A stretch of 64,000 nucleotides of DNA from Arthrobacter sp. C2 (GTDB taxonomy: Bacteria; Actinomycetota; Actinomycetes; Actinomycetales; Micrococcaceae). The DNA is taken from positions 1,054,001 through 1,118,000 of the forward strand of contig CP042428.1 in assembly GCA_024207135.1 (NCBI GenBank). The letters run 5' to 3'. Shown here one piece after another: positions 4,658 to 37,783 of the stretch (the first letter of the stretch is position 1; every line of letters begins with the position of its first letter). The position numbers and the translations under genes were made by a program. The notes under the pieces were generated by a model that was given only the letters and a program-made list of their open reading frames with translations, was not told the origin of the DNA and did no database searches.

Positions 4658-4867
4658 GTGCATGAACTGGATTTGATCCACGCAGCCGCGGAGGACGTGG
4701 CCTCCGCGCGTGTCCTTCTGCAGGAGCGCATGGCAGCTTTGGATGCCATCGTCCAGACCGCTCTCGACCACGGGATCCCCGAGAAGAAGGTGAATGTGGC
4801 CAGCGAACCGTCCCTGCTTCGCGACGACCGTGAGCTCGCCGGAGAGCGTCCGATGCTCGCCGCCTGA
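4658..4867 (+). CDS. Small conserved helical protein, paralog of the ORF at 8846
   Basis: A 69-residue protein I cannot assign to a known family. It starts at GTG 4658 with AAAGG nine bases upstream. It is predicted to be mostly helical: MHELDLIHAAAEDVASARVL, then LQERMAALDAIVQTALDHGI and a Ser/Arg tail. It aligns without gaps over about 48 residues with the product of 8846-9049 (pattern LDL-x2-AAA-x-DVA-x7-R-x5-AI-x2-A-L-x-HGI), so the two are paralogs. The HGIPEKKV segment resembles the turn of a helix-turn-helix, which could mean a small DNA-binding or anti-sigma-like role; this is speculative. A strong terminator follows. Confidence 0.65.
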   Translation: MHELDLIHAAAEDVASARVLLQERMAALDAIVQTALDHGIPEKKVNVASEPSLLRDDRELAGERPMLAA

Positions 4868-6991: not shown

Positions 6992-7446
6992 GGGGTTTCC
7001 TCCTGGGGGTTGAATGTTGGCGGAATGTCCTTAATGGTTTCGGCCGTCTTGGGCATGCCCTTGACCTCCTTGAAATGCTTCTTGCCCAGCGTGGCCATGA
7101 TGGCGGCAATGATCGCCCAGATCACCGCGATCACCACCGCGGACCAGCCATAGCCCATCCAGGAGGCTAGTCCGACCATTGCCGCAAGCGAGAGGAAGAG
7201 CAGTACGAAGTGGCCGGCCACGCCGGCGCCTGCATACAGCCCCGCCACCTTGCCCGTCGAACGTGCGGTCTGGCGCAGCTCGGCCTTGGCCAGCTCCGCT
7301 TCCTGGCGCACCAGCTCCGAGACGTTCTGGCTCAGGTCGCTGAACAGTTCTCCGAGGGAAGCATCCGAGGTCGGGACTCCCTTCGCCTGCCCAGGGGGAA
7401 TGTCGGTGCTGTGGGCTCCCGATGCCGTTGTTGGATATTCGCTCAT
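6988..7446 (-). CDS. Actinobacterial holin-X-like (phage holin family III) membrane protein
   Basis: A 152-residue protein. Residues 28-65 form a helix of the pattern 'LFSDLSQNVSELVRQEAELAKAEL', followed by two transmembrane helices (GLYAGAGVAGHFVLLFLSLA and 'SAVVIAVIWAIIAAIMATLG') and a short basic tail. This is the layout of the Phage_holin_3_6 family, which despite its name is usually chromosomal and not a lysis protein. It overlaps both neighbours by four bases (ATGA at 7443-7446 and at 6988-6991), so all three are expressed together. Confidence 0.85.
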   Translation of the reverse strand: MSEYPTTASGAHSTDIPPGQAKGVPTSDASLGELFSDLSQNVSELVRQEAELAKAELRQTARSTGKVAGLYAGAGVAGHFVLLFLSLAAMVGLASWMGYGWSAVVIAVIWAIIAAIMATLGKKHFKEVKGMPKTAETIKDIPPTFNPQEETP

Positions 7447-8354
7447 GGCCCGGTGTACCCCTGCTCGGTGCCGTGCACCGCCGACGGGTTGTAGCCGACA
7501 CCCGGGTTGCTCCCGGTGCCGCCCACCGCGCCTTCACCGATGGTTGGGTTCACCGTCGGCGGCAGCGGGCTGGCCGTTCGCGGTTGGGCGGCCTCCGGGA
7601 ATCCGGGGGTTTCAACGGCGTTTTTCCGGCTCTGGTCCGGCCCGCTTCCGGCATTGCGGGTGATGCGCCCGGCGAGAAGACCCGCACCCAGCGCGATGCC
7701 CAAAAAGGCCCCGGGCCGTCGGCGTGCGAAGCCCTTGACCTCGTCAAGCAGGTCACCGGGCTCCCGCTGTTCAAGCCAGTCCGCCGCGTTCCCGCTGTGC
7801 TTTGCGGCTTGGTCGACCAACATCGACGCGCTGCCCGAGGCATCGGAGGACGCGAGCATGTTGCGCAGGTCCCCGCTGATCTGGCGCAGGTTGGCCGAAA
7901 TCTTTTGCTGTTGGGTTCCCGCTTGTTCGCGGATGTCCGATCCAAGCTCGGAAAACAGGTTGGATGCCTGCTCCTTGGCCTGGTCCAGGACCTCTTCGGC
8001 CTCGCGCTTGGCCGTCTGGCCCACGTGCTTGGCGGAATCCACGCCCTCGCGAGCCAGCGCCCGGGTTTCCTCCTTGGCTTGCGCCCCCATGCCGGATTCG
8101 CCCTCCATGGGGGTTTCTGTTGTGGCCGGCGGCGGTGCCAACGGCATCTCAGTGCCCGCCGCAGCGAACGAGCCCGAATCCTGCGGGCTCACCGGTGCCG
8201 GAGGGCCGGCAGGTTCCAGTGGCCCAATCGGTTCGACAGGAACGCCGGGATGCGTGTGCACATCCGGTTCCAGTCCCCTGTCGTCAGCTGCGTCCCGGTC
8301 CCTCTCGATGTTGTCTTTGGGCCGATAGGCAGCGTTAAGATCGTTCTCACTCAT
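7443..8354 (-). CDS. Amphipathic-helix protein with C-terminal glycine-rich membrane segment
   Basis: A 303-residue hypothetical protein and first gene of the operon with the holin-like and DUF3618 genes. The start is ATG 8354, preceded by GGAGG; the longer frame upstream lacks a site. Residues 1-85 are acidic and Pro-rich. Residues 90-190 are a long predicted helix ('REGVDSAKHVGQTAKREAEE', 'FSELGSDIREQAGTQQQKI') resembling LEA or apolipoprotein-like proteins. A Gly-rich hydrophobic hairpin follows (RRPGAFLGIALGAGLLAGRI), then a disordered Pro/Gly tail. I recognise no named domain. With its partners it probably coats or shapes the membrane; that is inference. Confidence 0.8.
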   Translation of the reverse strand: MSENDLNAAYRPKDNIERDRDAADDRGLEPDVHTHPGVPVEPIGPLEPAGPPAPVSPQDSGSFAAAGTEMPLAPPPATTETPMEGESGMGAQAKEETRALAREGVDSAKHVGQTAKREAEEVLDQAKEQASNLFSELGSDIREQAGTQQQKISANLRQISGDLRNMLASSDASGSASMLVDQAAKHSGNAADWLEQREPGDLLDEVKGFARRRPGAFLGIALGAGLLAGRITRNAGSGPDQSRKNAVETPGFPEAAQPRTASPLPPTVNPTIGEGAVGGTGSNPGVGYNPSAVHGTEQGYTGP

Positions 8355-8845
8355 TGGTGACCTCCAGTTGATCCATGCCCGCCGCCATTGGGCGAGCCGT
8401 ATTCGTCGGAAAGTGCGTCCCGCGGTTTGCTTGGCGGACCCGCTTTGTGCCTCGCACCGGTTCCGGGGATCCGGTGCGGTCAAATGAATTTGCTTCGATA
8501 TCGAACGGGTTCCCCGCGGGCCATGACCCCCGCAGAGTCCCGGACCGCGGCCCGGGACACCCAACCAAATTGCAACTCCGATCGCCTGCTTGGGGAAATC
8601 GGGTTGTATAAGTAGCAAACCAATATCGGCGCGGCTGCACAACCTTTTTGACACCAGCACCGGCCAATTGCCGTTTTTCCTTGCCTGGTCCCTGGCTCGG
8701 GTGCCGGTGGCCGCACAAATCCTTGCTCCGTGGCTGCCCGAATGCTTGACTGTGAACAAGGGCAGCAAGAACCCCGCCACGGATGTGGCACACGGATCAT
8801 TGGGGGCAAGGGCAATTAGGCGAACTTCGGAACGACGGGCAAGCA
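8355..8845. other. Intergenic region, divergent promoters only
   Basis: No gene is supported. It separates the minus-strand holin operon from the plus-strand small gene at 8846. A TATAAG box lies at about 8606-8611 in an otherwise GC-rich stretch and might belong to a promoter, but no matching -35 is convincing. Confidence 0.45.
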
Positions 8846-9049
8846 ATGGGTGATTTGGACCTGGTTCGCGCGGCCGCCCAGGACGTGGCAGCGGCACTGC
8901 TGCTGTTGCGCCAACGCCAGGATGCCTTTGAAGCTATCAGCGCCACGGCCCTGAAACACGGAATCAGCGCAACGGATATCGCTTCCGCCATGGTGCCGGA
9001 GGAACCTGGAATCGGGTTGCCGGTGGATATGCGCGGCAGCGCGCGCTAA
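8846..9049 (+). CDS. Small conserved helical protein, paralog of the ORF at 4658
   Basis: Starts at ATG 8846 (MGDLDLVRAAAQDVAAALLL); the frame extends further upstream but homology to the 4658 product begins exactly here. The product is 67 residues, helical, ending in a Pro/Gly-rich tail. Shared positions with its paralog include LDL, AAAxDVA, a run of Leu/Arg/Gln, A-I-x2-TA-L-x-HGI and a short downstream acidic stretch. The upstream palindrome of the 4658 gene is not repeated here, so the two are likely regulated differently. It converges on a gene remnant starting at 9046. Function unknown. Confidence 0.6.
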   Translation: MGDLDLVRAAAQDVAAALLLLRQRQDAFEAISATALKHGISATDIASAMVPEEPGIGLPVDMRGSAR

Positions 9050-9190
9050 CGACCGGAGGTCCGCCTTCGGGCCAACCGCCAGCCGCCGACAACAAGGTTC
9101 GTCAACGCATCGCCACCCTTGGTGCGCGGACGCCACGCCAGCACGCTGAAGAACTTTCCCGGCCCCGTGGCACCACGCCCGTCAGCGTGA
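9046..9190 (-). pseudogene. Remnant of a second copy of the gene at 12169 (3' end)
   Basis: On the minus strand this reads HADGRGATGPGKFFSVLAW, RPRTKGGDALTNLVVGGWRL and then a stop at 9046. It matches the last part of the 12169-13320 product (SADARESTGWRKFFNVLAW, RPRTQ, then GIDALTNLVIGGWRL) with the intervening transmembrane part deleted. About 40 bases at 9073-9112 are nearly identical to 12188-12226. It is in the same orientation as the intact gene, so the two form an imperfect direct repeat around the accessory island. Confidence 0.75.
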
Positions 9191-9622: not shown

Positions 9623-9850
9623 TTACGCGAGCTTCTGCCTGGTGGAGGCCCCAGCCACGATTTTTCGGATGGCCTTCGTGGCTTCTTCTTCGGTACCGGT
9701 ATAGGGGTACTCGCCAATAATCGATCCGCCGCCAGATACGATTTCATAGTCAACGTTCTTCATGACTACATCAAGTTTCACACGCCCAGCTCGGGCATCT
9801 TCTACGAATCGACTGCTTCGTTTTGCGACGCTCCGTACCGACTTAGCCAT
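9623..9850 (-). CDS. Small hypothetical protein, last gene of accessory island operon
   Basis: A 75-residue protein starting MAKSVRSVAKRSSRFVEDAR with a strong GGGAGG site before ATG 9850. A basic N-terminal helix is followed by a compact segment (VKLDVVMKNVDYEIVSGGGS, YTGTEEEATKAIRKIVAG) with alternating strand and helix. I do not recognise the family. It overlaps the 3' end of the membrane-protein gene by eight bases (9843-9850), so it belongs to the same transcript and may be a toxin, antidote or accessory subunit of that system. Base composition is less GC-rich than the flanking core genes. Confidence 0.65.
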   Translation of the reverse strand: MAKSVRSVAKRSSRFVEDARAGRVKLDVVMKNVDYEIVSGGGSIIGEYPYTGTEEEATKAIRKIVAGASTRQKLA

Positions 9851-11156
9851 GATCTACCTCCCTGTTGCTGTTCCATCTTATCCGTGAAACGTGGCCTTTT
9901 ATCGTCTCCCCCAGAAAATACCATGCGAAGACAAACCAGGCCGCAAGTACCGAGCCGAAAACTAAGATCCAAGCCCCGTGCCACACCGGTTGGGCTACGG
10001 GAATTGCTGCAAGAATCGCCATGAGCACCAGAACTGTCGTGCACAAGTACAAGATCCATCTGAGAGGCTTAAGCAAATGCCCCTCATACGGGTGCTCTAC
10101 CTGCCTACTGATCCATGACAAGAGCAATGCCGGACCGATTAAGAGTATGGATGCCGATGGCGAGGGAATAACGGCCGCCTTTGCCAGGACCACGTCGCTA
10201 AATATCCGAACCAGTGTTGCAATGAGCACGAGGAATGATGTGAAGACAAGTGCCGATTTTGTAAAGCTAAGCAGCCCGGCCTTGGCCGGAGTCAGCCGCG
10301 CAATCACGAGACCGTTGTAAAATCTATGTCCCGGTTCAAGAACAGAGTGGGCGATAAAAGGTGGCTCACTGCGGCTCCTCAATTCAAGGTGATCAATCTT
10401 TGTAGAAGACCCGGCGAAGTCGAACTCGACGAAGTCCAATGAGACGATGGTCAGACTCGAAGGTACCTCCAGTTCAAAGTGCTGGCTCGCGCTGAACCCA
10501 TAGTCCGGAACGAGCTGGCTGAAATCCGCCTCGATGAAGTGCTCCGGTGAACGTGCTTGGACGTCTTGGTCGAAAGCATATTTCAGGGTGCACCGAACAC
10601 CTACCATCGACTCATCGACTTCGACCATAAACAGATAGTTTCCGGCCAGCAGTCTGATCAGCAGATCAAGCTCCTGCGGAACCTCGATCTGCTCGCTCGC
10701 GGCCCAAATTTTATACTTGCTGAGTTCTTCGACCCGTGCTTGCTCGTTGCAATGGACAACACTTGAAATAACCTCGACAGCCCTGGATTCATCGCTTGGA
10801 GAAAAGTTCTTGAGGTTTCAGATCGCCGAGCAAAGCATCTCCACAGCGAGCTTGGAGTTGTCCTTGCGTCCAAGAATCGGTAGTGATTTCCCCTCAAATC
10901 GAGCATCCAGCCGGGTTTTAGTTCCCTTGTTCAGCACAGCCAGTGGAACGACAATGCGGCCTTTGCTGCCTTGGATCTGAGCATCCTCGGGGACAGTGAC
11001 GTCTACGGATACATGACGACGAGTCCGGCCATCGGCACTCATGCGAAGCGAATCAACCCTCCGATGGGCCCAACTTTGCGATTCCAGGAGTAGCCGCAAA
11101 AGCACTTCGCCGTCGCTGGAATCCGGATTTTTTCCGACGAGAGTCGACAACTCCAT
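9843..11156 (-). pseudogene. Four-helix membrane protein of accessory island, interrupted by in-frame TGA
   Basis: A frame with coding character runs from ATG 11156 (AAAGGA just upstream, MELSTLVGKNPDSSDGEVLL) to a stop at 9843, broken only by TGA at 10818-10820 (codon 113). Both sides are in the same frame, and the 63 codons after the TGA up to the next ATG (10628) contain no other stop and look coding (NLKNFSPSDESRAVEVISS). Without the stop the product would be 437 residues: a soluble N-terminal region of about 300 residues, then four transmembrane helices at the C-terminus (for example 'SALVFTSFLVLIATLV', 'ILLIGPALLLSW', 'ILYLCTTVLVLMAILAAIPV', 'WILVFGSVLAAWFVFAWYFL'). The second part could be re-initiated at 10628. 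I do not recognise the family. Confidence 0.65.
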
Positions 11157-11223
11157 ATATCCTTTCAAGATCGGTGACGGAGGCGTGGCTTTACCTCTGC
11201 TGGCGAAACTTCTCGCGGCGCGG

Positions 11224-12132
11224 TTAGGCCCGAAGCATTTCCCAAAGCTGTTCTCTGGCCTCCACGAAATCAAACGACCCACCGGCCAACGTCGTGGTGA
11301 CATGTTCCAAGGACCAGCTGACCAAGGCACCGTATCTGGCCGAGTAGATGCCCACGGAGTTGATTTTGTACGAGTCGGAGCGATCGAGCAAAGCGTAGGC
11401 CAGCAATTGGTAGATTTCATCAATGCCCAACGAGTCGCTCCGAGTGCCGCTCTTGGCGTTCTTGGTTCCCAGCCGGGTCTTGATGTCGATCAACAATCCA
11501 TTGCAGATCAGGTCCGCTTCGGCAGCGATTAAGCGATCGTCGGCTCCCCCGCTTCGACGCGACGCGTCAAATTCGGGACCAAGGTGGAAGGGCGTCTTCA
11601 AGGCAGGAAGCAGGTTCCGGCCAGCCAGGCCACACAACGCCGTCATTTCCCGGACGGCAACTTCCGGTGCCTGGGACATCATGGAAGACACGTTGAATGA
11701 TTTGGAGCCCAGTAGTTCAAACACAACCGACGGAGCAGCCATGCCAACCCGGTGGACCGTTGCGCACAAGGCCAGCCCCCATACGGCCCGGGCAAAGCTT
11801 TCGGCTCCCCGCTCCCCGGCGTGTACAGACGAACCGGCGATCGAAGCCAGCTCATCCACTGTGCCTGTGTAATTTTTGTCCGCTCGCAAAAGGAATCGCG
11901 CCGACTGCGGCACGTCCGTTGGTTCCAACATTAGACGCACAGCCAGGTCCATCGCAGTTCCAACGGTGCCGGCGTGGGCCCCCATCGAGTCGACGATGAT
12001 CTCCCCGACGCGAACCTTGTATTCCCGGCGGATGGGGGCGGTGTTCGGGAACCTCTGGTCGAGGAATTGCCATAGGGGCGTACTTTTGTCCTTCACGGCC
12101 TTGCTGAGCGTCAAGCCATTGGTGATGTCCAT
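11224..12132 (-). CDS. PD-(D/E)XK-superfamily nuclease-like protein
   Basis: A 302-residue protein, first gene of the accessory island operon; the next gene starts 67 bases downstream. Around residues 205-220 it has 'EADLICNGLLIDIKTR': Asp207, then a strand with D216-x-K218, the canonical layout of the PD-(D/E)XK active site. A following helix contains 'DEIYQLLAYALL' and then 'INSVGIYSARYG', as in this fold's Q-x3-Y helix and last strand. The N-terminal 200 residues are helical and unassigned. It probably cleaves DNA or RNA. Together with the membrane protein and small ORF this looks like a mobile defence-type module, but no homology search backs that here. Confidence 0.65.
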   Translation of the reverse strand: MDITNGLTLSKAVKDKSTPLWQFLDQRFPNTAPIRREYKVRVGEIIVDSMGAHAGTVGTAMDLAVRLMLEPTDVPQSARFLLRADKNYTGTVDELASIAGSSVHAGERGAESFARAVWGLALCATVHRVGMAAPSVVFELLGSKSFNVSSMMSQAPEVAVREMTALCGLAGRNLLPALKTPFHLGPEFDASRRSGGADDRLIAAEADLICNGLLIDIKTRLGTKNAKSGTRSDSLGIDEIYQLLAYALLDRSDSYKINSVGIYSARYGALVSWSLEHVTTTLAGGSFDFVEAREQLWEMLRA

Positions 12133-12168
12133 GGCCCGAGACTAACGTGAAGCACAGTCAGATTGGCC

Positions 12169-13320
12169 CTATGCCTTGCGTTTGCCCCACAACCGCCAGC
12201 CGCCGATGACCAGGTTCGTCAACGCATCGATGCCCCAGAACGCGGCAATGAGCGCCACCGCCCAGAACGGCAGCCACGGCTGCTGCCAGTCGGTGAGCAT
12301 CACCAGGGCCAGGGCAACCAGAGCCTCCATGACGCCCCAGATGACCTGGGTGCGCGGGCGCCAGGCCAGCACGTTGAAGAACTTGCGCCACCCGGTGGAC
12401 TCGCGCGCGTCGGCGCTCATGCCGCTGGCAATCGTGGACCCCAGGGACTTGGGCTCCACCAGCACGGCGGTGTCCGGCAGCGTGCCTTCCTCGACGTAGT
12501 CGGCCAGGGATTCATCGCGGCCAAAGATCTTCAGCACGGTGCGCAACTTGTCCACCGACCCGCTGCCGCCCAGGGCGTCGTTGAGCTGGGCGATCACGTC
12601 CTCGCCGATGCCGTATTCGGTCAGCTCGGCGATGGACTCCAGGTCCGGGGCCAGCCATTCGCGGGACAGGAAGTCGGCGACCTCTGCGGAATCGGTTCCG
12701 GGCACGGTGTCCAGCACCGGGGCCGCTGCCACCGACCAGCCGTGGCCGAAGCCCGGGTAGCCGTGGAGCTTGCGATTTTGTCCCTCGAACCAGAAGACCA
12801 TGGAAAAGCGCGGGCCCAGGCGGGAAAGCATGATGGCGGGGAAGGTGGCGCGGGAGAGCATGATCTCGGGCATGTAGCCCTCGTGCACCGCCACGTCGCC
12901 GTGTTCGGTGGAGAAGTGGTGCCAGGCGGTCTTGGTCGCCCCGGCAAAGAGCGCGACCTCCGAGCCCTTGAAGGAACCCAGCAGCACCGAGCGCCCGCCG
13001 GTGGGGTACTCGAGGGCCGCGTCGTCGATGGGTTCGCCGCTTTCGGCATCCACCCCGTCGAAGTCGGCCCAGCGGGCCCCGGTCCCCCGCTTCAGGGCAA
13101 TGGCAAATCCCTCGATCTGCTGCCCGAAGCTGGTGTTGCCGTCCGCATCGGCCATGACGATGAACCCCTCGGCGTTCACCGCCAGGACCATCTCGATCAC
13201 GCAGAGCTCACCCCAGGAGACCGGCTCGGCCAGCAGCGCAATGGACTGCCTGGCGCGCAGCGTCTCGGAGATCCGCCGGTGTGCATCGCTCCCGGTGGGC
13301 TCGTCGAAGATCAGGGCCAT
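12169..13320 (-). CDS. Conserved hypothetical protein with C-terminal membrane hairpin
   Basis: About 383 residues from ATG 13320 (MALIFDEPTGSDAHRRISET); a TTG at 13392 inside ffh is an alternative start. Residues 1-300 appear soluble and include 'FDEPTGSDAHRRISETLRAR', 'FSTEHGDVAVHEGY' and 'GYPGFGHGWSVAAAP'. Two transmembrane helices lie near the end (VIWGVMEALVALALVMLTDW and PFWAVALIAAFWGIDALTNL), followed by a short basic tail GGWRLWGKRKA. I do not recognise a named family. It lies just downstream of ffh on the same strand, and a deleted copy of its 3' end occurs at 9046-9190. Possible links to membrane targeting rest only on location. Confidence 0.75.
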   Translation of the reverse strand: MALIFDEPTGSDAHRRISETLRARQSIALLAEPVSWGELCVIEMVLAVNAEGFIVMADADGNTSFGQQIEGFAIALKRGTGARWADFDGVDAESGEPIDDAALEYPTGGRSVLLGSFKGSEVALFAGATKTAWHHFSTEHGDVAVHEGYMPEIMLSRATFPAIMLSRLGPRFSMVFWFEGQNRKLHGYPGFGHGWSVAAAPVLDTVPGTDSAEVADFLSREWLAPDLESIAELTEYGIGEDVIAQLNDALGGSGSVDKLRTVLKIFGRDESLADYVEEGTLPDTAVLVEPKSLGSTIASGMSADARESTGWRKFFNVLAWRPRTQVIWGVMEALVALALVMLTDWQQPWLPFWAVALIAAFWGIDALTNLVIGGWRLWGKRKA

Positions 13321-13369
13321 GGAGGCGATCAGCCACTGCGGGCTCTCGCCTCCCGGCCCGGGGTGGGGG

Positions 13370-14920
<1,551 letters not shown>

Positions 14921-21808: not shown

Positions 21809-22555
21809 ATGTCGGCCACCAGCAAAACAGGCCAGTCCGAACTGGCCGTTCGCCTCCCCCGGGCCTCGGTCTTCGGGTTCCTTGCGGCCGCCTTGCTGTT
21901 CATGGCCTCGGCGGTGCTGCAGCACCTGGCTTCGATCCAACGCTGGGTGGTGCTGCGCGGGCAACGTCCCGGCAACGAGCTCACGGTCGAAGACCACGAA
22001 TTGGACTACAGCTTCCCCGCAGATCCCTGGGAGACGATCGGGACCGCGGCCGAGCTCTTCGGGGCGGCCACGCTGCTCCAGGCCGTGGGCGTCCTGGCCA
22101 TGGCCCTGGGCGTGCTGGCCGTGCCTCGCGTGGCACCCAACCGGATCGGCATCGTCGCCGAGCCTGTGCTCGGGATCTTGGTTGCCGCCGCGTTCGCGGT
22201 CATGGGTGCCCATGCCCTGATCTCGGGGATCAACGGTGCGCCCTCCGATCTGCAGCACTCGCGGGTGTTGGCCCCGCTCATGGTCTGGTGCGGATTCGGC
22301 GGCCTGGCAGCCCTGGCGTGGCTGTGGTCCTGCATGTCGAGGGCGGCATCGGTGGCGTGCGTGTTCCTGGTGGGTTCAAACATGTTCGGTGCTGCGATCG
22401 CCAATTTCACGGTCGCTGCCATGATCGCCGGCTACGTCTCTCATGACACGACCCCCTGGCTCGAAAGCGTGGTCGCCGGCACGAGCGCCGCGGCCGCCCT
22501 GGCCATGGTCTTCGCAGCCGGCACCGTGGTGCGCCGCTACCGGCGCGCGGGATAA
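21809..22555 (+). CDS. Six-helix membrane protein, tandem paralog 1
   Basis: A 248-residue hypothetical membrane protein. Six predicted helices: 'VFGFLAAALLFMASAVLQHL', 'FGAATLLQAVGVLAMALGVL', 'PVLGILVAAAFAVMGAHALI', 'LMVWCGFGGLAALAWLW', 'ACVFLVGSNMFGAAIANFTV' and 'VVAGTSAAAALAMVFAAG'. The loop after helix 1 holds the paralog motif QRWV then VEDHELDYSFP..PWETIG. There is no ribosome binding site, consistent with the leaderless promoter six bases upstream. It heads a row of four paralogs, each with its own promoter. No named family recognised; the acidic/aromatic outer loop suggests a ligand- or ion-binding role, which is conjecture. Confidence 0.8.
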   Translation: MSATSKTGQSELAVRLPRASVFGFLAAALLFMASAVLQHLASIQRWVVLRGQRPGNELTVEDHELDYSFPADPWETIGTAAELFGAATLLQAVGVLAMALGVLAVPRVAPNRIGIVAEPVLGILVAAAFAVMGAHALISGINGAPSDLQHSRVLAPLMVWCGFGGLAALAWLWSCMSRAASVACVFLVGSNMFGAAIANFTVAAMIAGYVSHDTTPWLESVVAGTSAAAALAMVFAAGTVVRRYRRAG

Positions 22556-22590
22556 AACCAAGCCCACGCACCGGCGCAGGTCCGCTGCCA

Positions 22591-22624
22591 TTGACTTCGG
22601 CGGTGCGCTGGCTAGGGTGGGGCC
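22591..22624 (+). promoter_or_regulatory. Leaderless promoter, paralog 2
   Basis: TTGACT (22591-22596), 16-base spacer, TAGGGT (22613-22618), six bases (GGGGCC), ATG at 22625. Geometry is identical to the other three promoters in the array. Confidence 0.8.
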
Positions 22625-23338
22625 ATGTCGGCCATCAACGATTCGTCCCGGGTCACGCGGAGCGTCGGCTTCCACACTGTTTCGTTCACGCTCCTGCTCG
22701 GAGCCGCCTTGCTGTTTCTCGCCTCGGCCGTCATCCAGCAGCGGGCCTCGATCCAGGGCTGGGAGGTCTTCAACGGCGAGCTGTCCGGCGACGGGCCGGG
22801 GGTCGACCCGCAGGATCAGTTCGCCGCCACGGCTCGGCTGTACAGTGTGGCCAACTGGCTCAAGGTGCTCGGGATGCTGGCGATGGCCGCGGGGGTGCTG
22901 GCACTGCCGCGGGTGGCGCAAAAACGCAAGGCAGTGGTTGCCGGGTCGGTGGCAGTGGTCCTCGTGGCCGTCTCATTCGGAATCCACGCAATGCTCGCCG
23001 GGGACCAGGGTTCCACCGGCATCCAGACCCTCATGATGGATCCAGAGTTGCCGGTGCGGATGATGTTTCTTCTCTCCTTGGTCGGCCTGGTGGCCGCGGC
23101 CATCTGGTGGCGGGGCAGCTCGCTGCCGGCCATGATCGGGTGCCTGTTCCTGCTCGGCTCCACCGTGCTGGGCGATTTCGTGGCCTCCAGCGTCATCACT
23201 CCCCTGCTCTACGCGTTTGCCGGCGACGGGTTCTTCCCGGTCACCGAAATGGTGGTCATTGCAACCACCGCCGCGGCCGGCATCTCGATGCTTTTGGCAG
23301 TCGGTTCGCAGGTGCGCAGGGCCAGCCGCACCGACTGA
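22625..23338 (+). CDS. Six-helix membrane protein, tandem paralog 2
   Basis: A 237-residue member of the tandem family and the most divergent of the four. It keeps the helix pattern ('SFTLLLGAALLFLASAVIQQ', 'LKVLGMLAMAAGVLALPRVA', 'VVLVAVSFGIHAMLAG', 'MIGCLFLLGSTVLGDFVASS') and the IQGW at the end of helix 1. The outer-loop signature is replaced by a Gly/Asp/Gln-rich stretch (GDGPGVDPQDQF) that lacks the EDH-x-x-DY motif, so it may have a changed ligand. It begins MSAIND with no ribosome binding site. The 69-base gap from paralog 1 contains its own promoter. Confidence 0.8.
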   Translation: MSAINDSSRVTRSVGFHTVSFTLLLGAALLFLASAVIQQRASIQGWEVFNGELSGDGPGVDPQDQFAATARLYSVANWLKVLGMLAMAAGVLALPRVAQKRKAVVAGSVAVVLVAVSFGIHAMLAGDQGSTGIQTLMMDPELPVRMMFLLSLVGLVAAAIWWRGSSLPAMIGCLFLLGSTVLGDFVASSVITPLLYAFAGDGFFPVTEMVVIATTAAAGISMLLAVGSQVRRASRTD

Positions 23339-23373
23339 GCACCGGGGCCCTCGGCCGGCTGCCCGGGCAACCA

Positions 23374-23407
23374 TTGACTCCTGCAGGCAAATTGCTACGG
23401 TTGGGCC
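23374..23407 (+). promoter_or_regulatory. Leaderless promoter, paralog 3
   Basis: TTGACT (23374-23379), 16-base spacer, TACGGT (23396-23401), TGGGCC, ATG at 23408. The last 14 bases of spacer plus -10 closely match paralog 4 (TTGCTACGGTTGGGCC). Confidence 0.82.
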
Positions 23408-24178
23408 ATGTCGGGGTTAAGCGAAACCGGTGGGCATGCCCGGGAAGTGCGCTTCCGCAAGACATCGTTCCTATTCATGCTCGCCGCCACGGTGCTGCTC
23501 CTGGTGTCCTTTACGTTGCAGCTGATCGCCTCGTTGCAGCGCTGGGTGACCTTCAGCGGCCCCCAGGGGCCGGCTGACCGATCGGTCGAAGACCACGCCT
23601 ATGACTACTTCCTGCCTTTTGAGGGCTGGGAGCCCATCGGCAACGCCGCCCAGCTCCTCGGGGCGGGTTTGCTCATCCAGGTGCTCGGCCTGCTGGCGAT
23701 GGCTCTGGGGGTCATGCTGCTGCCGGCCGCGTCAAAGGTGTTCGGCCGGACCGCCACCGTTGGCATCGCCGTGGTCGAAGTCGTTTTGGTGCTCCTGGTG
23801 GCGGCCGCCTTCACGCTCCATGGCGGATTGGTCTTGGTCGCCGGGGTCAACGGGACGGCTACCGGGCTGGAGATCGGACCGGGGGTGTTCTGGTCGATGC
23901 TCTTGGTCGCGCTGATCGGGCTGGTGGCCTTGGCCCTGTTCTGGGGATACAGGTTGCCGGCGGCCGGGATTGCGTGCGTGTTCCTGATCGGGTCAACCAT
24001 GGCGGGCTACCTCTTGGCCACCTACATGGTGGCACCGATTTTCTTTGGCATGTCCCACGACACCGCCCGCTTCACCGAGACGGTGGTCGCGGCATCCACC
24101 GCCGCCGCGGCGGTGGCCATGGCCTTCGGCGCCAGGGACGTGGTTCGGCGCGCGGCCGCCCGCGTGGAGCCCGCGTAG
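23408..24178 (+). CDS. Six-helix membrane protein, tandem paralog 3
   Basis: A 256-residue member of the tandem family. Helix 1 is 'FLFMLAATVLLLVSFTLQLI' followed by 'ASLQRWVTFSGPQGPADRSV' and the family outer-loop signature EDHAYDYFLP..GWEPIGNAAQL. Later blocks are 'QVLGLLAMALGVMLLPAA', 'AGIACVFLIGSTMAGYLLAT' and a short basic tail. It is closest to paralog 4 by eye, in both protein and promoter, suggesting these two duplicated last. Leaderless start at ATG 23408. Confidence 0.8.
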   Translation: MSGLSETGGHAREVRFRKTSFLFMLAATVLLLVSFTLQLIASLQRWVTFSGPQGPADRSVEDHAYDYFLPFEGWEPIGNAAQLLGAGLLIQVLGLLAMALGVMLLPAASKVFGRTATVGIAVVEVVLVLLVAAAFTLHGGLVLVAGVNGTATGLEIGPGVFWSMLLVALIGLVALALFWGYRLPAAGIACVFLIGSTMAGYLLATYMVAPIFFGMSHDTARFTETVVAASTAAAAVAMAFGARDVVRRAAARVEPA

Positions 24179-24242
24179 TGTACGAATCGGATTGATCCGG
24201 GCCCCGGCCAGCCTCGCCCGGCGGCGGAAACCAGCGCAGCCA

Positions 24243-24276
24243 TTGACTCGTGCGGGCACGTTGCTACGGTTGGGCC
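24243..24276 (+). promoter_or_regulatory. Leaderless promoter, paralog 4
   Basis: TTGACT (24243-24248), 16-base spacer, TACGGT (24265-24270), TGGGCC, ATG at 24277. Confidence 0.82.
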
Positions 24277-25035
24277 ATGTCGGGCAGCAAGCCATCGGGA
24301 ACGCGCCTCAAAGCCCTGCGTTTTCGCAGGGCCAGGATCCTGTGGCTGTCCATTGCCGCCGCCCTGTTCCTGGTCTCCTGCCTCATGCAGCTGGCCGCGG
24401 TGCTGCAACGCTGGGTGGTCCCAGCCGGCACCCGCGGACCCAGGGGCCTGTTGATCGAGAACCACCGCTACGACTACTACTTTCCCGTGGAGAACTGGGT
24501 CCCACTGGGCACGACCGCGCAGCTGTTCGGTCTCGCAATGCTGCTGCAGGCGATCGGGGTCCTGGCCATGGCCGCCGGCGTCATGTTCTTGCCGGATCCA
24601 ACGGTGGACCACCTCAGGCTCGTCGGGATCGCCGCTGCCACATGCGAGGCACTGCTTGCCGTCCTCTTCGCGGCCTCCTTCGCCGTGATCGGGTCCCATG
24701 CGCTCATCTCCGGCCTCGCCGGAGCCGCGTCCGGGATGCCGGATGCCACTGGGCTGTCCTGGGGCGTGCTCCTGGCCGGGATGGTGTCTCCGCTGATCCT
24801 TGCTGCCCTGTGGCGCGTCAGGCTGCCGGCCGCCGGCACCGCATGCCTGTTCCTGCTCGGCACCGGCTTCGCGGGCTACCTCGCGGCCATCTACGTGGTC
24901 TCGCCACTGATTGCGCTCAAGGCCTATGACGCCCGGTGGGCCGAGACGGTGATGGCGGTGTCGACCGCAGCCTCGGCGGTGGCCATGGCGGTGGGTGCGC
25001 TGTTCCTTGCGCGGCGCACGTTGCCTGCCGCTTAG
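24277..25035 (+). CDS. Six-helix membrane protein, tandem paralog 4
   Basis: A 252-residue member of the tandem family. It starts at ATG 24277 (MSGSKPSGTRLKALRF); a GTG at 24250 lies inside the promoter and is rejected. It shows 'LSIAAALFLVSCLMQLAAVL', 'QRWVVPAGTRGPRG', the loop signature ENHRYDYYFPVENWVPLG, 'TAQLFGLAMLLQAIGVLAMA', 'TACLFLLGTGFAGYLAAIYV' and a final helix with a short Arg-rich end. It is the last gene of the array; a GC-rich hairpin lies about 120 bases downstream. Confidence 0.8.
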   Translation: MSGSKPSGTRLKALRFRRARILWLSIAAALFLVSCLMQLAAVLQRWVVPAGTRGPRGLLIENHRYDYYFPVENWVPLGTTAQLFGLAMLLQAIGVLAMAAGVMFLPDPTVDHLRLVGIAAATCEALLAVLFAASFAVIGSHALISGLAGAASGMPDATGLSWGVLLAGMVSPLILAALWRVRLPAAGTACLFLLGTGFAGYLAAIYVVSPLIALKAYDARWAETVMAVSTAASAVAMAVGALFLARRTLPAA

Positions 25036-32561: not shown

Positions 32562-34406
32562 ATGCCATTCCATGAAGCCTCAGGCCCTTCGGGCCACGTG
32601 GTGAGCCAGCCGCCACAGCCCCACCGGGCACCAAGGGCCGCGCTCATGGTCACGTGGGCTGTAGAGCAGGGTTTCGGCGGCATGACAGCCATGTGCCTGA
32701 AGCGTGCCGGGCTCTTCCACGAGGGCGGCGTTCCCAGCGCCGTGGTGACCTTTGACGCCAACCCGGAGCTCGACGCCATTCGCACCGCGTTGACGGCCAA
32801 CGGAAAGCTTCACCCCGAGGTGCCCCTCCTCAATCTCCATGAATACTATGCGGAGCAGCCACCGGCCACGGAGACGGGTCGCGGGCTGAAGTTGCGCGGG
32901 ACCGGGATTCCCTGGACCGAGGCCGCGCGGCTCGACCGGTCGTTGGACGGGTCGCTGTTTTGCGTTGATTACACTTCCGCCGGCAACGACAAGCTGTCCA
33001 AGCGTGAATACCACCGGCGCGACGGCAGCGTGTACCTGGTGGACGCCACGCTCCCGGCCCCGCACGATCCCGACCAGACAGTCAGGACACTGCAGCTTCT
33101 GGCCGCCGACGGAACCGTCCAGCTCGAATTCACCAGTGCCGCACGGCTATACCGGCATTGGCTGACCGAATTGGTGGATCGAAGCAATGCCGATGTAATC
33201 ATTGACAGCAAGTTCTCCGCCGGGTTCCTCTTCGCATGGCAGCATCCCACCGCACTGAAGTTCGTCAACTTCCACAGCACCCATGTCGCAGCCGGTCAGG
33301 ACACGCTGACCGGCAAGCTCTCCCCCGCCCACCGGAAGATCATCGACAACCGCGACGCCTGGGACGGGATCACCTTCCTGACCGAATCACAGCGCACCGC
33401 CTTTGTGCGGAGGTTCGGCAACGGCTCCAACACCGTGGTGATCAGCAACCCCGTGGATGGGCCGGACACGTTGCCGGCTTTCGAAGCCCGGGATCCGGGA
33501 ACGGTGGTCCACGTGGGGCGGTTCACCAAGGGCAAGAACATCGGTGCGGTCATTGACATCGTCAACGCCGTGTCCGTTGCGAACGTTCCTGTCCACCTGG
33601 ACCTGATCGGAGACGGGGACCAACGCCCCGTCCTGGAAGAGCAGGTCCGCCGGCTCGGCATCGGTCATCTGGTGAGCTTCCACGGGCACGTCCACGACGT
33701 GGCCCGGCGACTGTCCAAGGCACGTGTCCTCCTGCTGTGCAGCAGGTTCGAAGGCCAATCGCTGGCGATCCTCGAGGCCCAGGCCCATGGCTGCGTCCCG
33801 GTCGCGTACGACGTGGACTTCGGCCCCAGGGATGTCATACAGGATGGACGCAACGGGTTCATAGTCCCGTTTGGCGACCAGGAAGCCGCAGCCATGGCCT
33901 TGGGACGGCTCCTGGCTGACGATGCGCTGTGCGCCGGGATGTCAGACCAGGCGTTTGAATCTGCTAGGCAATACAGCAGCGAGCAAATCTTCACCCACTG
34001 GAAGGAAGCCCTTGAGATGGCCCGAGTGAACAAGAAAGACCGCGAGGTCCTCGCGGCTGCCACGGTCCGGCTGGCCGGGCTGCGCTTCCATCCGGACGGC
34101 GACACCGATCTGGAGGTGGCCGTCAACACCGGCTCCGGGCATCTCGGGGGCCTCATGCTCGTGGTCACCGAACGGGGAACCGACGCCGGCCAGGGAAAGA
34201 CGTTCGAACCGTACAACGAATCGGACGGCATCTTCGGTTTCAGGATTCCAGCCTCCCTGCGCGCCCAGCTTCCGGGATCCGATGCGTTGGACATCAACGC
34301 CGTCCTTGACGTTGGCGGTCTGAAACGCACCATCCGCCTCGGTGCCACGCCCAAGCCGGCATCTGTGCCCTATTTCACGGCCTACGGAAACCTGAGCATC
34401 AAATAG
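32562..34406 (+). CDS. GT4 glycosyltransferase, TagE/TarM-like (poly(glycerol-phosphate) glucosyltransferase type)
   Basis: A 614-residue GT-B glycosyltransferase. The start is ATG 32562, AAGGAG nine bases upstream. The N-terminal domain has 'TWAVEQGFGGMTAMCLKRAG' (donor-side glycine loop) and a long TagE-like insert ('YHRRDGSVYLVDATLPAPHD', 'LTELVDRSNADVIIDSKFS'). The C-terminal donor domain has 'VHVGRFTKGKNIGAVIDIVN', 'SRFEGQSLAILEAQAHGCVP' (E-x7-E) and 'FGPRDVIQDGRNGFIVPFGD'. An extra C-terminal beta-rich domain of about 120 residues follows. It most likely adds sugars to a wall teichoic-acid-like polymer made by the neighbouring glycerophosphotransferases. Confidence 0.85.
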   Translation: MPFHEASGPSGHVVSQPPQPHRAPRAALMVTWAVEQGFGGMTAMCLKRAGLFHEGGVPSAVVTFDANPELDAIRTALTANGKLHPEVPLLNLHEYYAEQPPATETGRGLKLRGTGIPWTEAARLDRSLDGSLFCVDYTSAGNDKLSKREYHRRDGSVYLVDATLPAPHDPDQTVRTLQLLAADGTVQLEFTSAARLYRHWLTELVDRSNADVIIDSKFSAGFLFAWQHPTALKFVNFHSTHVAAGQDTLTGKLSPAHRKIIDNRDAWDGITFLTESQRTAFVRRFGNGSNTVVISNPVDGPDTLPAFEARDPGTVVHVGRFTKGKNIGAVIDIVNAVSVANVPVHLDLIGDGDQRPVLEEQVRRLGIGHLVSFHGHVHDVARRLSKARVLLLCSRFEGQSLAILEAQAHGCVPVAYDVDFGPRDVIQDGRNGFIVPFGDQEAAAMALGRLLADDALCAGMSDQAFESARQYSSEQIFTHWKEALEMARVNKKDREVLAAATVRLAGLRFHPDGDTDLEVAVNTGSGHLGGLMLVVTERGTDAGQGKTFEPYNESDGIFGFRIPASLRAQLPGSDALDINAVLDVGGLKRTIRLGATPKPASVPYFTAYGNLSIK

Positions 34407-34631
34407 CCGTGGGGATTTCCCGTCCTCGCGCGCCGGGATCCGTGGACCGCGGCCAACAGCCACGCACTATCAATACGCCCTTCTGTGCCGGAGGATTGGT
34501 TCCATCAAGGTAATCCTCATCAAGCGCACAGGTTGCGCTGCCAGCTTTAAGGGCAACGAACATATCGGGTTTCCCCGCTTCTCGCCGGTCGTTACGGCGG
34601 CCGGAGAACGGGCATGAAATGACGGAAGCAG

Positions 34632-35924
34632 GTGACCGGCACGATGAAGGATTGGTTGAGCCAACAGCTCAAGGCAGCGATCAGTTCCAAACCGGGAATT
34701 AAGACCAGACGATGGCTTGGCCTGGGCACGGCAACCGTTGCCAATCACGAATTGGACCATATTCCGGTGGCCGGAGACGTCGTCGTCTATTTCAGCGACG
34801 TGGTCAACAAGGCGTACCAACTTGAACAGTGGATCCCCACCTTGGAGCAGCTCCACGAGCACCACCGTGTCGTGCTCGTCTTCCGGAAGGTGCCCACGAT
34901 GCGCCATTTCCGGAAGTTGACCGACCTCCCCAAGATCTACGTCCGCCGTTTGGACGACCTCGTGAACTTCTACAACTTCAATGATTTCAAGCTTTGCCTC
35001 TATGTCAACAACGGTGTGGCGAACTTCCAGTCCCTGACCGCCTCCAGACCGGTACACGTCCATGTCAACCATGGCGAGAGCGACAAGCTTTCCATGGTCT
35101 CGAACCAGGCGAAGGCCTACGACAAGATCTTTGTTGCCGGCCCGGCCGCCGTGGAACGCCACAAGGCCGTCCTACTGGATTTCGATCTGGACAAGCTTCT
35201 CAGCGTTGGCAGGCCACAGTTGGACTCGCGTTTTGAGTCCGAGCTTCCCGCATTCACGGGCAAGACGGTCATGTATGCACCCACGTGGGAGGGTGAGAAC
35301 GATGCAAACAACTACACCTCAATGGATCTCTTTGGCGAGAGCATCATCGAAGCATTGGTGGCCCTCCCTGACATGCGAGTCATCTACAAGCCCCATCCAC
35401 GCATCCTGACCTCGACGACAGCCGCAGTCGCACGTGCACACACGCGGATCAATGAAATCCTCGAAGAACACAACACCGCCGGTGCCCAACACGTGATTGC
35501 TGAAGCCCAGAACATCCTGGCGCTCTTCGAAGACATTGACGCGTTGGTCACCGATGTTTCGAGCGTGGGCCTGGACTTCCTGTATCTACACCCAGAGAAG
35601 CCGTTGATTCTTACCGATCGGCGAAACGACTTGGAGAAGCTGAATCGGGAAGTTCCCGTCAGCAGGGCCTGCCCGGTGATCAGCGATTCAACCCAAGGTT
35701 CCTTGCTGGCCTCAATGGCCACGCATCTCAACGCGGCTCCGAGTGAGGAACGCCTGCAGATGCGTGCGTTTTATTTTGGGGATCGCCAGCGAGGTTCCTC
35801 AACAACGGACTTCATCGCGGCGGTCGACGGGCTGATCAAGGGCCGTGAACAGCAGCTGGAGTCTTACGAGCTCCGCGGCAGCGCCTTGGACTCCGAGGAC
35901 TCCCCAGACTCCGCCGACGAATGA
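34632..35924 (+). CDS. CDP-glycerol:glycerophosphotransferase-like protein (HGESDK subfamily)
   Basis: A 430-residue soluble or peripheral GT-B transferase of the teichoic acid TagB/TagF type. Landmarks: 'VVVYFSDVVNKAYQLEQWIP', 'VNNGVANFQSL', 'HVHVNHGESDKLSMV' (in place of TagF WHGTPLK), 'VGRPQLD', 'VMYAPTWEGEND', 'VIYKPHPRIL' and 'VTDVSSVGLDFLYLHPEKPL'. The start is GTG 34632; ATG 34644 is an alternative. It shares whole-length layout with the products at 56933, 58665 (two copies) and 62237. It would transfer a polyol-phosphate to a lipid- or sugar-linked acceptor at the membrane; the exact substrate is unknown. Confidence 0.85.
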   Translation: MTGTMKDWLSQQLKAAISSKPGIKTRRWLGLGTATVANHELDHIPVAGDVVVYFSDVVNKAYQLEQWIPTLEQLHEHHRVVLVFRKVPTMRHFRKLTDLPKIYVRRLDDLVNFYNFNDFKLCLYVNNGVANFQSLTASRPVHVHVNHGESDKLSMVSNQAKAYDKIFVAGPAAVERHKAVLLDFDLDKLLSVGRPQLDSRFESELPAFTGKTVMYAPTWEGENDANNYTSMDLFGESIIEALVALPDMRVIYKPHPRILTSTTAAVARAHTRINEILEEHNTAGAQHVIAEAQNILALFEDIDALVTDVSSVGLDFLYLHPEKPLILTDRRNDLEKLNREVPVSRACPVISDSTQGSLLASMATHLNAAPSEERLQMRAFYFGDRQRGSSTTDFIAAVDGLIKGREQQLESYELRGSALDSEDSPDSADE

Positions 35925-35960
35925 CACGCTCCGCGCCGTTCAAGCCGGCAGAAACGCAGT

Positions 35961-36003
35961 AATGCGGGTTGGTCCATTCGTTCAGAATGGACCAACCCGC
36001 ATT
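35961..36003. terminator. Strong bidirectional terminator
   Basis: A perfect 19-bp stem (35961-35979 pairing with 35985-36003) with a five-base loop lies between the convergent glycerophosphotransferase gene and glnK. The A/T flanks allow use in both directions. Confidence 0.85.
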
Positions 36004-36018
36004 GCCGTATTTGTCGGG

Positions 36019-36357
36019 TTACACCGCGGCCAGGCCGCGCTCACCGGTGCGAACCCTGATCACTTCCTCCACGTGGGTGACCCAGATCTTCCCGTCGCCG
36101 GCGCTACCGGTGTTTGCCGTGGAGATCAAGACATCCAGGATGTCGTCGCAGGAGTCCTCCTCCACCAAGATTTCGAGGCGGACCTTGGGAAGGAGGTCGA
36201 CAGTGTACTCAGCGCCCCGGTAGACCTGCGTGTGTCCGCGCTGCCGACCGTAACCGCTGGCTTGGCTGATGGTCATGCCCTGGACCCCGTAGGACTCGAG
36301 TGCCTCCCGGATCTGGTCCGTCTTTTCAGGCCGGATGATGGCTGTCACGAGTTTCAT
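36019..36357 (-). CDS. glnK: PII nitrogen-regulatory protein (GlnK/GlnB)
   Basis: A 112-residue trimeric PII signal protein that senses 2-oxoglutarate, ATP and ADP and blocks AmtB. The T-loop is 'QRGHTQVYRGAEYTVDLLPK' with the modifiable Tyr at 51 (YRGAEY); the B and C loops are 'VEEDSCDDILDVLISTANTG' and 'GDGKIWVTHVEEVIRVRTGE'. Its ATG overlaps the amtB stop by four bases (36354-36357), the usual amtB-glnK coupling. The modifying enzyme gene glnD, commonly next in actinobacteria, is absent from this window. Confidence 0.96.
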   Translation of the reverse strand: MKLVTAIIRPEKTDQIREALESYGVQGMTISQASGYGRQRGHTQVYRGAEYTVDLLPKVRLEILVEEDSCDDILDVLISTANTGSAGDGKIWVTHVEEVIRVRTGERGLAAV

Positions 36358-37682
36358 GCGTTGACCTCTTCCTTGACTCGATCCGCATCCTTGGCGGCGG
36401 CGGACTTCAGGTGTGCCGAGGTGGCCGGGTGCGGGACGAAGGTCCCGCCGGTACCCAGGCCGCCGAACTCGTAGCCGGTCTCGGCGTGCTGCATCAGGTC
36501 GATGCCGGCGATTTCGTGCTCGGTGGTGATGCGGAAGCCCATGGTCTTGTGAATGGCCAGGCCGATGATGGCGGTCATGATGGCGGTGAAGGACATGACC
36601 ACCAGGCAGGCTACGATCTGGGCCCAGAGCTGGCCGAATCCCCCGCCGTAGAAGAGTCCGCCACCCACGCCGTCAACAGGAAGGGCAATGAAGCCCAGGG
36701 CCACGGTTCCAATGATGCCGGAGACCAGGTGAACACCCACCACGTCAAGGGAATCATCGTAGCCCCAGCGGTACTTCAGACCCACGGCCAGGGCCGAGGC
36801 GACGCCGGCAACAATGCCCAATCCAATGGCTGCAACAGGAGTGATGTTGGCGCAGGCCGGGGTGATGGCCACCAGCCCGGCCACGATGCCAGAGGCAGCG
36901 CCCAAGGATGTGCTGTGGCCGTCGCGAAGGCGCTCGACCAGGATCCAGCCCAGCAATGCTGCGGCGGGGGCTGCCAGGGTGTTCACCCAGATCAATCCGG
37001 CTTCCTCAGCGGTGCTGGCGGCGCCGCCGTTGAATCCAAACCAACCGAACCAAAGCAGGGCCGCACCAAGCATGACGAAGGGGATGTTGTGGGGACGCTG
37101 GCTCGGATCCTTCCCGAAACCGCGGCGCTTGCCAAGGATGAGCGCCAAGATCAGTCCGGCAACGCCGGCATTGATGTGCACCACGGTGCCTCCGGCAAAG
37201 TCAATGGCCTCGCCCACCACCGAGCCGATGGCGCCGTCGGCTCCGAGGATGCCGCCGCCCCAGACCCAGAAGGCGATCGGCGCGTAGACCACGGTCACCC
37301 AGACGGGAACGAACACCATCCAGGCACTGAATTTTGCGCGGTCCGCCACGGCTCCGGAAATCAGTGCAACGGTGATGATCGCGAAGGTCGCTCCGTAACC
37401 GGCAGCAATGAAGCCATCGGTGCCGAGCATCGATCCCATCCCGAACCCGTCCGCCGGATTTCCCATGAGGCCGCCAATGTTTGCGCCGCCGCCCGACATG
37501 GAGTTTCCCCAGAGCACCCACACCACGGTGACCAGGGCGATGGCCGAGAAGCTCATCATCATCATGTTCAGTACGCTTTTGGCCCGGGTCATCCCGCCGT
37601 AGAAGAATGCCAGTGCCGGGGTCATCAGCAGGACGAGCGCGGCACACACCATCATCCATACCTGAGTCGTTGTTAGCTCCAT
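36354..37682 (-). CDS. amtB: Ammonium transporter AmtB
   Basis: A trimeric channel for ammonium uptake; 442 aa from ATG 37682 (GGGAGG eight bases before). About eleven helices; visible Amt signatures include 'TTQVWMMVCAALVLLMTPAL', 'FFYGGMTRAKSVLNMMMMSF', 'DFAGGTVVHINAGVAGLILA' and 'MLGAALLWFGWFGFNGGAA'. The conserved pore His in 'VVHINAG' and 'VGVHLVSGIIGTVALG' are present. Co-transcribed with glnK. A GlnR-type site about 86 bases upstream suggests induction under nitrogen limitation. Confidence 0.96.
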   Translation of the reverse strand: MELTTTQVWMMVCAALVLLMTPALAFFYGGMTRAKSVLNMMMMSFSAIALVTVVWVLWGNSMSGGGANIGGLMGNPADGFGMGSMLGTDGFIAAGYGATFAIITVALISGAVADRAKFSAWMVFVPVWVTVVYAPIAFWVWGGGILGADGAIGSVVGEAIDFAGGTVVHINAGVAGLILALILGKRRGFGKDPSQRPHNIPFVMLGAALLWFGWFGFNGGAASTAEEAGLIWVNTLAAPAAALLGWILVERLRDGHSTSLGAASGIVAGLVAITPACANITPVAAIGLGIVAGVASALAVGLKYRWGYDDSLDVVGVHLVSGIIGTVALGFIALPVDGVGGGLFYGGGFGQLWAQIVACLVVMSFTAIMTAIIGLAIHKTMGFRITTEHEIAGIDLMQHAETGYEFGGLGTGGTFVPHPATSAHLKSAAAKDADRVKEEVNA

Positions 37683-37767
37683 GTCTAACGCCTCCCTGAA
37701 TCGCTCGCGAGTCTTTCTCGCCTGATTCAAGAATTCCTTGACGGTGTTACGTGCGATTCGACCAACC

Positions 37768-37783
37768 GTTTCGCGGGGGTTAC
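37768..37783 (-). promoter_or_regulatory. GlnR-type binding box upstream of amtB
   Basis: On the minus strand: GTAAC, six bases (CCCCGC), GAAAC, an exact match to the GTnAC-n6-GaAAc element of actinobacterial GlnR. A further GTAAC half-site follows 17 bases downstream (toward amtB). It lies 86-101 bases before the amtB start. Confidence 0.65.

What the first reader, a model, noticed from the sequence alone, without database searches (positions are those of the whole stretch)
9623..12132. Possible uncharacterised defence-type module: PD-(D/E)XK nuclease, four-helix membrane protein, small protein
Three overlapping or closely spaced minus-strand genes form an operon. The first has D207 and D216-x-K218 in the layout of a PD-(D/E)XK active site. 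The second is a large soluble region ending in four transmembrane helices. The third is a 75-aa protein overlapping the second. The island is less GC-rich than its flanks and has duplicated flanking sequence. A nuclease plus membrane effector plus small protein is a common architecture for phage-defence systems, but I cannot match this combination to a described one.
Basis: partly seen in the sequence, partly recalled or inferred. Interest (0 to 1): 0.75.

Follow-up and report, generated by a model that had tools for sequence, protein, structure and literature searches.

The report
Nuclease beside broken membrane-protein gene pair
A small inserted stretch in a soil bacterium carries a likely DNA-cutting enzyme next to a separate, uncharacterised pair of genes (a membrane protein and a tiny partner) whose membrane gene is broken here but intact in many relatives; the three do not appear to form one conserved system.

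Summary
The three minus-strand genes exist, but they do not look like a three-gene system, and the middle one is interrupted. Gene 1 (11224-12132) is a convincing RecB-type PD-(D/E)XK nuclease by sequence: D207, D216, K218, Q242 and Y246 are invariant in all 13 sequences aligned, the window's included. Two of its close relatives sit beside restriction systems. Gene 3 (9623-9850) belongs to a small-protein family found directly downstream of gene 2 elsewhere: 12 of 49 small ORFs at that position score, against 1 of 2,737 other small ORFs. So genes 2 and 3 form a real pair. Gene 1 was not found in the 40 other gene-2 loci examined, nor gene 2 in 16 gene-1 loci. The predicted gene-2 fold is a beta-sandwich with a helical insert, then four membrane helices. 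Gene-2 neighbours include more defence genes than controls, but by locus only suggestively. The island is a lineage-specific insertion beside a duplicated gene end. Defence function is inferred, not shown.

The parts
11224..12132 (-). Gene 1: solitary RecB-type PD-(D/E)XK nuclease, 302 aa; conserved residues D207, D216, K218, Q242, Y246
   Evidence: PADLOC RTasPDDEXK E 3.6e-5, residues 204-286; invariant in 13 of 13 sequences
9843..11156 (-). Gene 2 as a whole: membrane protein gene, interrupted by one in-frame stop; start at 11156 inferred
   Evidence: profile match with 1 TGA inside
10821..11156 (-). Gene 2, first piece (112 codons): N-terminal region with the H-R-R-V motif
10818..10820 (-). 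In-frame TGA that ends the first piece of gene 2
   Evidence: the aligned relatives have no stop there
9843..10817 (-). Gene 2, second piece: rest of soluble domain, four membrane helices and the S-W-x-x-R-x-x-E-H motif
9933..10253 (-). Region of the four predicted membrane helices of gene 2
   Evidence: hydropathy; helices in the intact relative
9623..9850 (-). Gene 3: 75-aa protein with SGGGSI core, conserved partner of gene 2; overlaps its end
   Evidence: (31.1 bits, E 1.2e-9 with a profile of 16 dissimilar relatives)
9073..9112 (.). Left copy of the duplicated flank (with 12190-12229)
   Evidence: 93% identity
9117..9187 (.). Left copy of second duplicated stretch (with 12345-12415)
   Evidence: 79% identity
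12190..12229 (.). Right copy of the duplicated flank, 3' end of the gene at 12169-13392
12345..12415 (.). Right copy of second duplicated stretch
12169..13392 (-). Gene of unknown function next to ffh whose 3' end borders the insertion; matched in 15 of 15 genomes of the genus, own included

Best explanation
The stretch from about 8.65 to 12.19 kb is a lineage-specific insertion at the 3' end of a conserved gene. It carries two independent accessory units. Unit A is gene 1, a solitary PD-(D/E)XK nuclease of the RecB type; it most likely cuts foreign DNA at the D207/D216/K218 metal site. Unit B is a two-gene module, gene 2 plus gene 3. In intact relatives gene 2 makes a protein with a soluble, probably cytoplasmic beta-sandwich domain with a helical insert, joined to four membrane helices; gene 3 makes a small partner from a start at or near the end of gene 2. 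I think unit B is a membrane-acting defence or stress module: the soluble domain senses a signal, or is held by gene 3, and the four-helix part then perturbs the membrane. In this genome gene 2 carries a premature TGA, so unit B is probably inactive while unit A looks intact. Shown: motifs, gene 2-gene 3 linkage, interruption, insertion, no gene 1-gene 2 linkage in the loci examined. Inferred: DNA cutting, placement in the cell, sensing, membrane action, defence role.
For: Conserved residues in 13 of 13 sequences. Gene 1 relatives next to type IIG RM, DEDDh-UvrD and PDC-S37-like genes (own-genome paralogue), next to a type III RM (L013), and near an AAA protein (L014) (neighbours picked by eye). 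Gene 2-gene 3 linkage. No gene 1-gene 2 linkage. One TGA in an otherwise conserved frame. Model of an intact relative, pLDDT 81: strands, helical insert, strands, four membrane helices. Gene 2 neighbours: 86 PADLOC families at E<=1e-20 from 106 proteins (25 of the 86 shown), against 2 families from 106 control proteins. Flanks close together in two congeners.
Against: No activity data. Many gene 2 loci lie among ordinary metabolic genes; in six loci of one genus and two of another the position is conserved, which suits a housekeeping role too. By locus, the defence neighbourhood rests on 6 loci of 33 mapped (at 1e-40, from ten proteins picked by eye, three of which did not match), against at most 3 of 19 control stretches (at 1e-20); in one of the six, L080, gene 2 is itself a remnant. 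Gene 1 has no Pfam match and no credible PDB sequence match, and its fold was not predicted. The TGA could be a sequencing error.
Confidence: 0.42

Rival explanations
1. The three genes are one uncharacterised defence system in which nuclease, membrane effector and small protein act together.
For: Same strand, short gaps (67 bases between genes 1 and 2; 8-base overlap between 2 and 3), one island.
Against: Gene 1 not found in 40 of 40 other gene 2 loci; gene 2 not found in 16 of 16 gene 1 loci; gene 2 interrupted here.
Confidence: 0.06
2. Genes 2 and 3 are not defence genes but a cell-envelope or homeostasis module (for example a channel or sensor) that is gained and lost in Micrococcaceae and related actinobacteria.
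For: Six loci of one genus keep the pair between the same neighbours, and two loci of another keep gene 2 near hisI- and trpE-like genes; many loci have ordinary neighbours.
Against: Patchy presence (30 of 395 sampled family genomes; 8 of 345 class genomes, own included); 6 of 33 loci mapped beside strong restriction or defence genes; four short or split copies among 40 other loci.
Confidence: 0.33
3. The island is a decaying remnant of a mobile element: gene 2 is dead, gene 3 is left over, and gene 1 is merely not yet decayed.
For: TGA in gene 2; diverged flank duplication; no integrase among the three genes.
Against: Gene 1 and gene 3 are open and keep their conserved residues; gene 2 shows only one lesion.
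Confidence: 0.19

Closest known systems
RecB/Cas4-type PD-(D/E)XK nucleases with the QhxxY motif (motif in PMC4625639; passages seen)
   Same: D, D-x-K and Q-x-x-x-Y in order, invariant in 13 of 13 sequences
   Different: No Pfam match; only three cysteines and no C-terminal cysteine cluster, so not a Cas4 iron-sulphur nuclease
PADLOC RTasPDDEXK (DRT)
   Same: Weak profile match over the active-site half, E 3.6e-5
   Different: No Pfam match, hence no reverse transcriptase, in gene 2, gene 3 or the 12169 gene; genes further off not scanned. That this model stands for reverse-transcriptase-associated nucleases is read from its name
C-terminal part of an annotated UvrD-helicase protein of a Streptomyces linear plasmid (L166)
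   Same: Same nuclease family in the alignment
   Different: Gene 1 is stand-alone, without a helicase
GABA-A and glycine receptors (ligand-gated channels), by architecture only
   Different: rmsd 6.7-8.1, 8-13% identity; gene 2 has no hydrophobic N-terminal segment and cytoplasmic placement is inferred; not a membership claim
Beta-sandwich domains in oligosaccharyltransferase chains and in leukotriene A4 hydrolase
   Different: Gene 2 has a four-helix insert within the strand region and four membrane helices; no shared function implied

Membership tests
PD-(D/E)XK nuclease, RecB type | Catalytic D ... D-x-K | tested here: met
   D207, D216, K218 invariant in 13 of 13 sequences
PD-(D/E)XK nuclease, RecB type | QhxxY motif after the active site | tested here: met
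   Q242 and Y246 invariant in 13 of 13; motif as in PMC4625639 (passages)
PD-(D/E)XK nuclease, RecB type | PD-(D/E)XK core fold | not tested
   fold job never accepted, queue full
PD-(D/E)XK nuclease, RecB type | Metal-dependent DNA cutting | not testable with these tools
   needs an assay
Cas4 | Four cysteines for an iron-sulphur cluster (as in PMC4625639) | tested here: not met
   the 302-aa sequence has three cysteines, none in a C-terminal cluster
DRT (reverse-transcriptase) defence with RTasPDDEXK | Reverse transcriptase gene adjacent | tested here: inconclusive
   no Pfam match in gene 2, gene 3 or the 12169 gene; genes further away not scanned
Three-gene system as proposed | The three genes co-occur elsewhere | tested here: not met
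   0 of 40 gene 2 loci hold gene 1; 0 of 16 gene 1 loci hold gene 2, E<=0.01
Gene 2-gene 3 pair | Gene-3-type ORF directly downstream of gene 2 | tested here: met
   window gene 3 31.1 bits; 12 of 49 nearby small ORFs against 1 of 2,737 others at E<=0.01; 18 of 22 places with E<1e-6 adjoin a gene 2 match
Gene 2-gene 3 pair | Intact gene 2 | tested here: not met
   TGA at 10818-10820
Known Pfam, NCBIfam or PADLOC family for genes 2 and 3 | Significant profile match | tested here: not met
   gene 2 pieces and gene 3; 20 gene 2 relatives: best Pfam E 0.033, best PADLOC E 0.064. PHROGs not searched
Ligand-gated channels of the GABA-A/glycine receptor kind | Same fold, extracellular sensor domain, pentamer | tested here: inconclusive
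   middling structural match; topology only inferred; assembly not tested

The most novel reading that the evidence does not exclude
Genes 2 and 3 found a new type of actinobacterial two-gene immune module: a channel-like protein with a cytoplasmic beta-sandwich sensor and four membrane helices, laid out like a ligand-gated channel turned inwards, gated or held by a tiny co-translated partner with a GGGS core.
Probability: 0.15. Interest if true: 0.78.

Novelty: new variant of a known kind. Interest (0 to 1): 0.48.

Why it matters
It removes one proposed system and puts a better-supported unit in its place: a two-gene membrane module without a match in Pfam, NCBIfam or PADLOC and with a reproducible small partner. 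It also defines a stand-alone RecB-type nuclease family, seen beside restriction systems and on actinobacterial plasmids, with conserved residues ready to test.

Tried and rejected
One three-gene system: rejected on linkage. Gene 2 as intact: rejected. Gene 1 as Cas4: too few cysteines. Viral contigs: no relative of gene 1 or gene 2. Plasmids: no match for the second piece of gene 2; 43 records for gene 1. Single-sequence gene 1 scan of genome contigs: nothing. Single-sequence gene 3 search: only the window's own copy, 1 of 395 genomes. PDB sequence searches with gene 1 and gene 2 profiles: only weak hits, best E 0.02 and 5.4; gene 3 was not searched there. Literature: two searches gave no paper; one gave a single paper, start of abstract seen; a genus-plus-phage search and a nuclease-motif search gave listings, of which only PMC4625639 was opened, for passages. 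I make no claim that the pair is absent from print beyond those searches. Gene 1 could not be folded: the queue stayed full. Plain Foldseek searches were never accepted, so the structural comparison is the VIA-align second look alone.

Selections that matter. The defence-neighbour test used 106 of 159 listed proteins, from 33 of 40 loci (five near-identical loci, two weak ones, proteins over about 1100 aa and some others dropped). The control used 106 of 116 proteins, from 19 stretches at coordinates I chose elsewhere in the same genomes. In one search only 25 of the 86 matching families were shown. Ten proteins picked by eye were used to map hits to loci; one of them was not among the 106, and 7 of 10 matched at 1e-40, from 6 loci. 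The neighbours of gene 1 relatives were also picked by eye. The gene 3 test dropped 8 duplicate loci, and six doubtful sequences were kept out of training. The gene 3 genome search used a profile trained partly on the same genomes: of the 18 places that adjoin gene 2, 9 come from genomes not in training, 8 of them close kin of training rows. Four strong places in one genome (G190) have no gene 2 match, and six weak ones (E 1.8e-4 to 8.7e-3) lie away from gene 2.

Full report
What is in the window. The window lies at 1054001-1118000 of a single-contig 4.56 Mb genome. The three genes lie on the minus strand at 9623-12132. GC falls to 52-58% over 9-12 kb against 63% and 66% in the adjacent kilobases.

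Gene 2 is interrupted. Six-frame reading shows one frame from 11156 to 9843 with an in-frame TGA at 10818-10820. The pieces match consecutive parts of single proteins in relatives, for example residues 25-113 and 123-396 of one 440-aa protein. A family profile finds one place in the genome, 392 bits, with one TGA inside. Apart from the stop, the invariant columns of the relatives look kept (by eye). The ATG of the downstream open frame (10628) has no clear ribosome-binding site, while gene 3 has a good one (sequences, my reading). So the membrane part is probably not made here, unless the stop is a sequencing error, which I cannot exclude. Four of 40 other loci also have a short or split gene 2 (L069, L074, L080, L099).

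Genes 2 and 3 belong together. Gene 2 relatives were found in 30 of 395 sampled genomes of the family, 8 of 345 of the class, own included, and 15 named loci, partly the same genomes. Small ORFs with a G-G-G-S-like core lie directly downstream in many. With a profile built only from dissimilar relatives, the window's gene 3 scores 31.1 bits (E 1.2e-9). Over 41 loci, 12 of 49 small ORFs at that position pass E 0.01, against 1 of 2,737 elsewhere in the same loci; the nearby ORF is the best in its locus in 23 of 41. In the reverse direction, 22 places in 390 family genomes match the gene 3 profile at E below 1e-6, and 18 adjoin a gene 2 match; four in one genome do not. That profile was partly trained on these genomes.

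Gene 1 is a separate unit. It is not found in the 14 other genomes of the genus; it matches in 11 of 395 family genomes, strongly (E below 1e-50) in five including its own. The genome holds a second copy, 49% identical, at 4.476 Mb. In an alignment of 13 sequences (the window, six chromosomal or unplaced loci of the family with stand-alone or longer proteins, plasmid proteins and others) D207, D216, K218, Q242 and Y246 are invariant, the RecB-type layout (QhxxY motif: PMC4625639, passages seen). PADLOC's RTasPDDEXK matches weakly. The second copy lies near a type IIG restriction enzyme, a DEDDh-UvrD protein and a PDC-S37 relative; another relative lies beside a type III restriction system (L013), one near an AAA protein with a weak REase_II match (L014), one near a TrwC relaxase (L017). 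One relative, L022, carries leucine-rich variant repeats. No gene 1 match occurs in 40 gene 2 loci, and no gene 2 match in 16 gene 1 loci. In what I examined, the three-gene arrangement is peculiar to this window.

Neighbourhood of gene 2. Among 106 neighbour proteins from 33 loci, matches at E<=1e-20 fell in 86 PADLOC families, of which 25 were shown; these include BrxD, type I and II restriction, DruM, PD-Lambda-1 and ThsB. In 106 control proteins from other places in the same genomes, 2 families matched, 3 member matches in all. Many families are overlapping models hit by one protein. A mapping run of ten proteins placed matches at 1e-40 in 6 loci (L060, L080, L082, L097, L110, L113) and none for three others. 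By locus that is 6 of 33 mapped, a lower bound, against at most 3 of 19 controls at 1e-20: suggestive only. Many other loci have ordinary neighbours.

How it came here. The 3' end of the gene at 12169-13392 is duplicated at 9073-9187. In the congener locus L133 the two flanks lie about 650 bases apart, with a single copy of that gene end, against 3.5 kb here; in L136 they lie about 700 bases apart. In the other nine of 11 congener loci compared the left flank was not found as a long match, so only the right edge could be placed; in seven loci similarity ends at 12175-12194 and in four it weakens or ends further inside the gene (12223-12580). The insertion's three genes have no match to any integrase family; the rest of it was not scanned.

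Reading. I see an insertion with a likely active nuclease and a separate, here probably dead, membrane module whose intact relatives deserve testing. The nuclease identity rests on sequence; its fold and activity were not tested. The defence role of the pair is inferred from patchy distribution, decay and partial association with defence genes; an envelope or homeostasis role remains open.

Noticed in passing
L015 (own genome, 4467000-4485000): The gene 1 paralogue lies in a dense defence island: MmeI-like type IIG enzyme, DEDDh-UvrD protein, PDC-S37-like helicase-nuclease.
   Followed up: partly
window 21809-25035: Four consecutive called genes of 237-252 aa with similar hydrophobic N-termini look like a tandem family (by eye).
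   Followed up: no
window 4658-4867 and 8846-9049: Two small called genes (69 and 67 aa) look alike; the second lies at the insertion's left edge (by eye).
   Followed up: no
L022:5699-8842: A protein with a gene-1-type nuclease region also carries leucine-rich variant repeats, beside a resolvase-like gene.
   Followed up: partly
L166:2525-4924 (Streptomyces linear plasmid): Gene-1-type region in the C-terminal part of an annotated UvrD-helicase protein 3-5 kb from the record's end; several other Streptomyces plasmid hits also lie within 10 kb of the record's start.
   Followed up: partly
L063:7448-8212: A gene-3-like N-terminus continues into a 255-aa frame with a different C-terminal part (by eye).
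   Followed up: no
L113 at 7195-8676 and 11889-13415: Two gene 2 relatives in one locus, beside a type II restriction enzyme and methyltransferase.
   Followed up: partly
L169, L170, L171 (genome G190): Four gene-3-like matches without a gene 2 match, three of them within 1 kb of a contig end.
   Followed up: partly
window 34000-48000: A second stretch of mostly lower GC (52-64% per kilobase).
   Followed up: no
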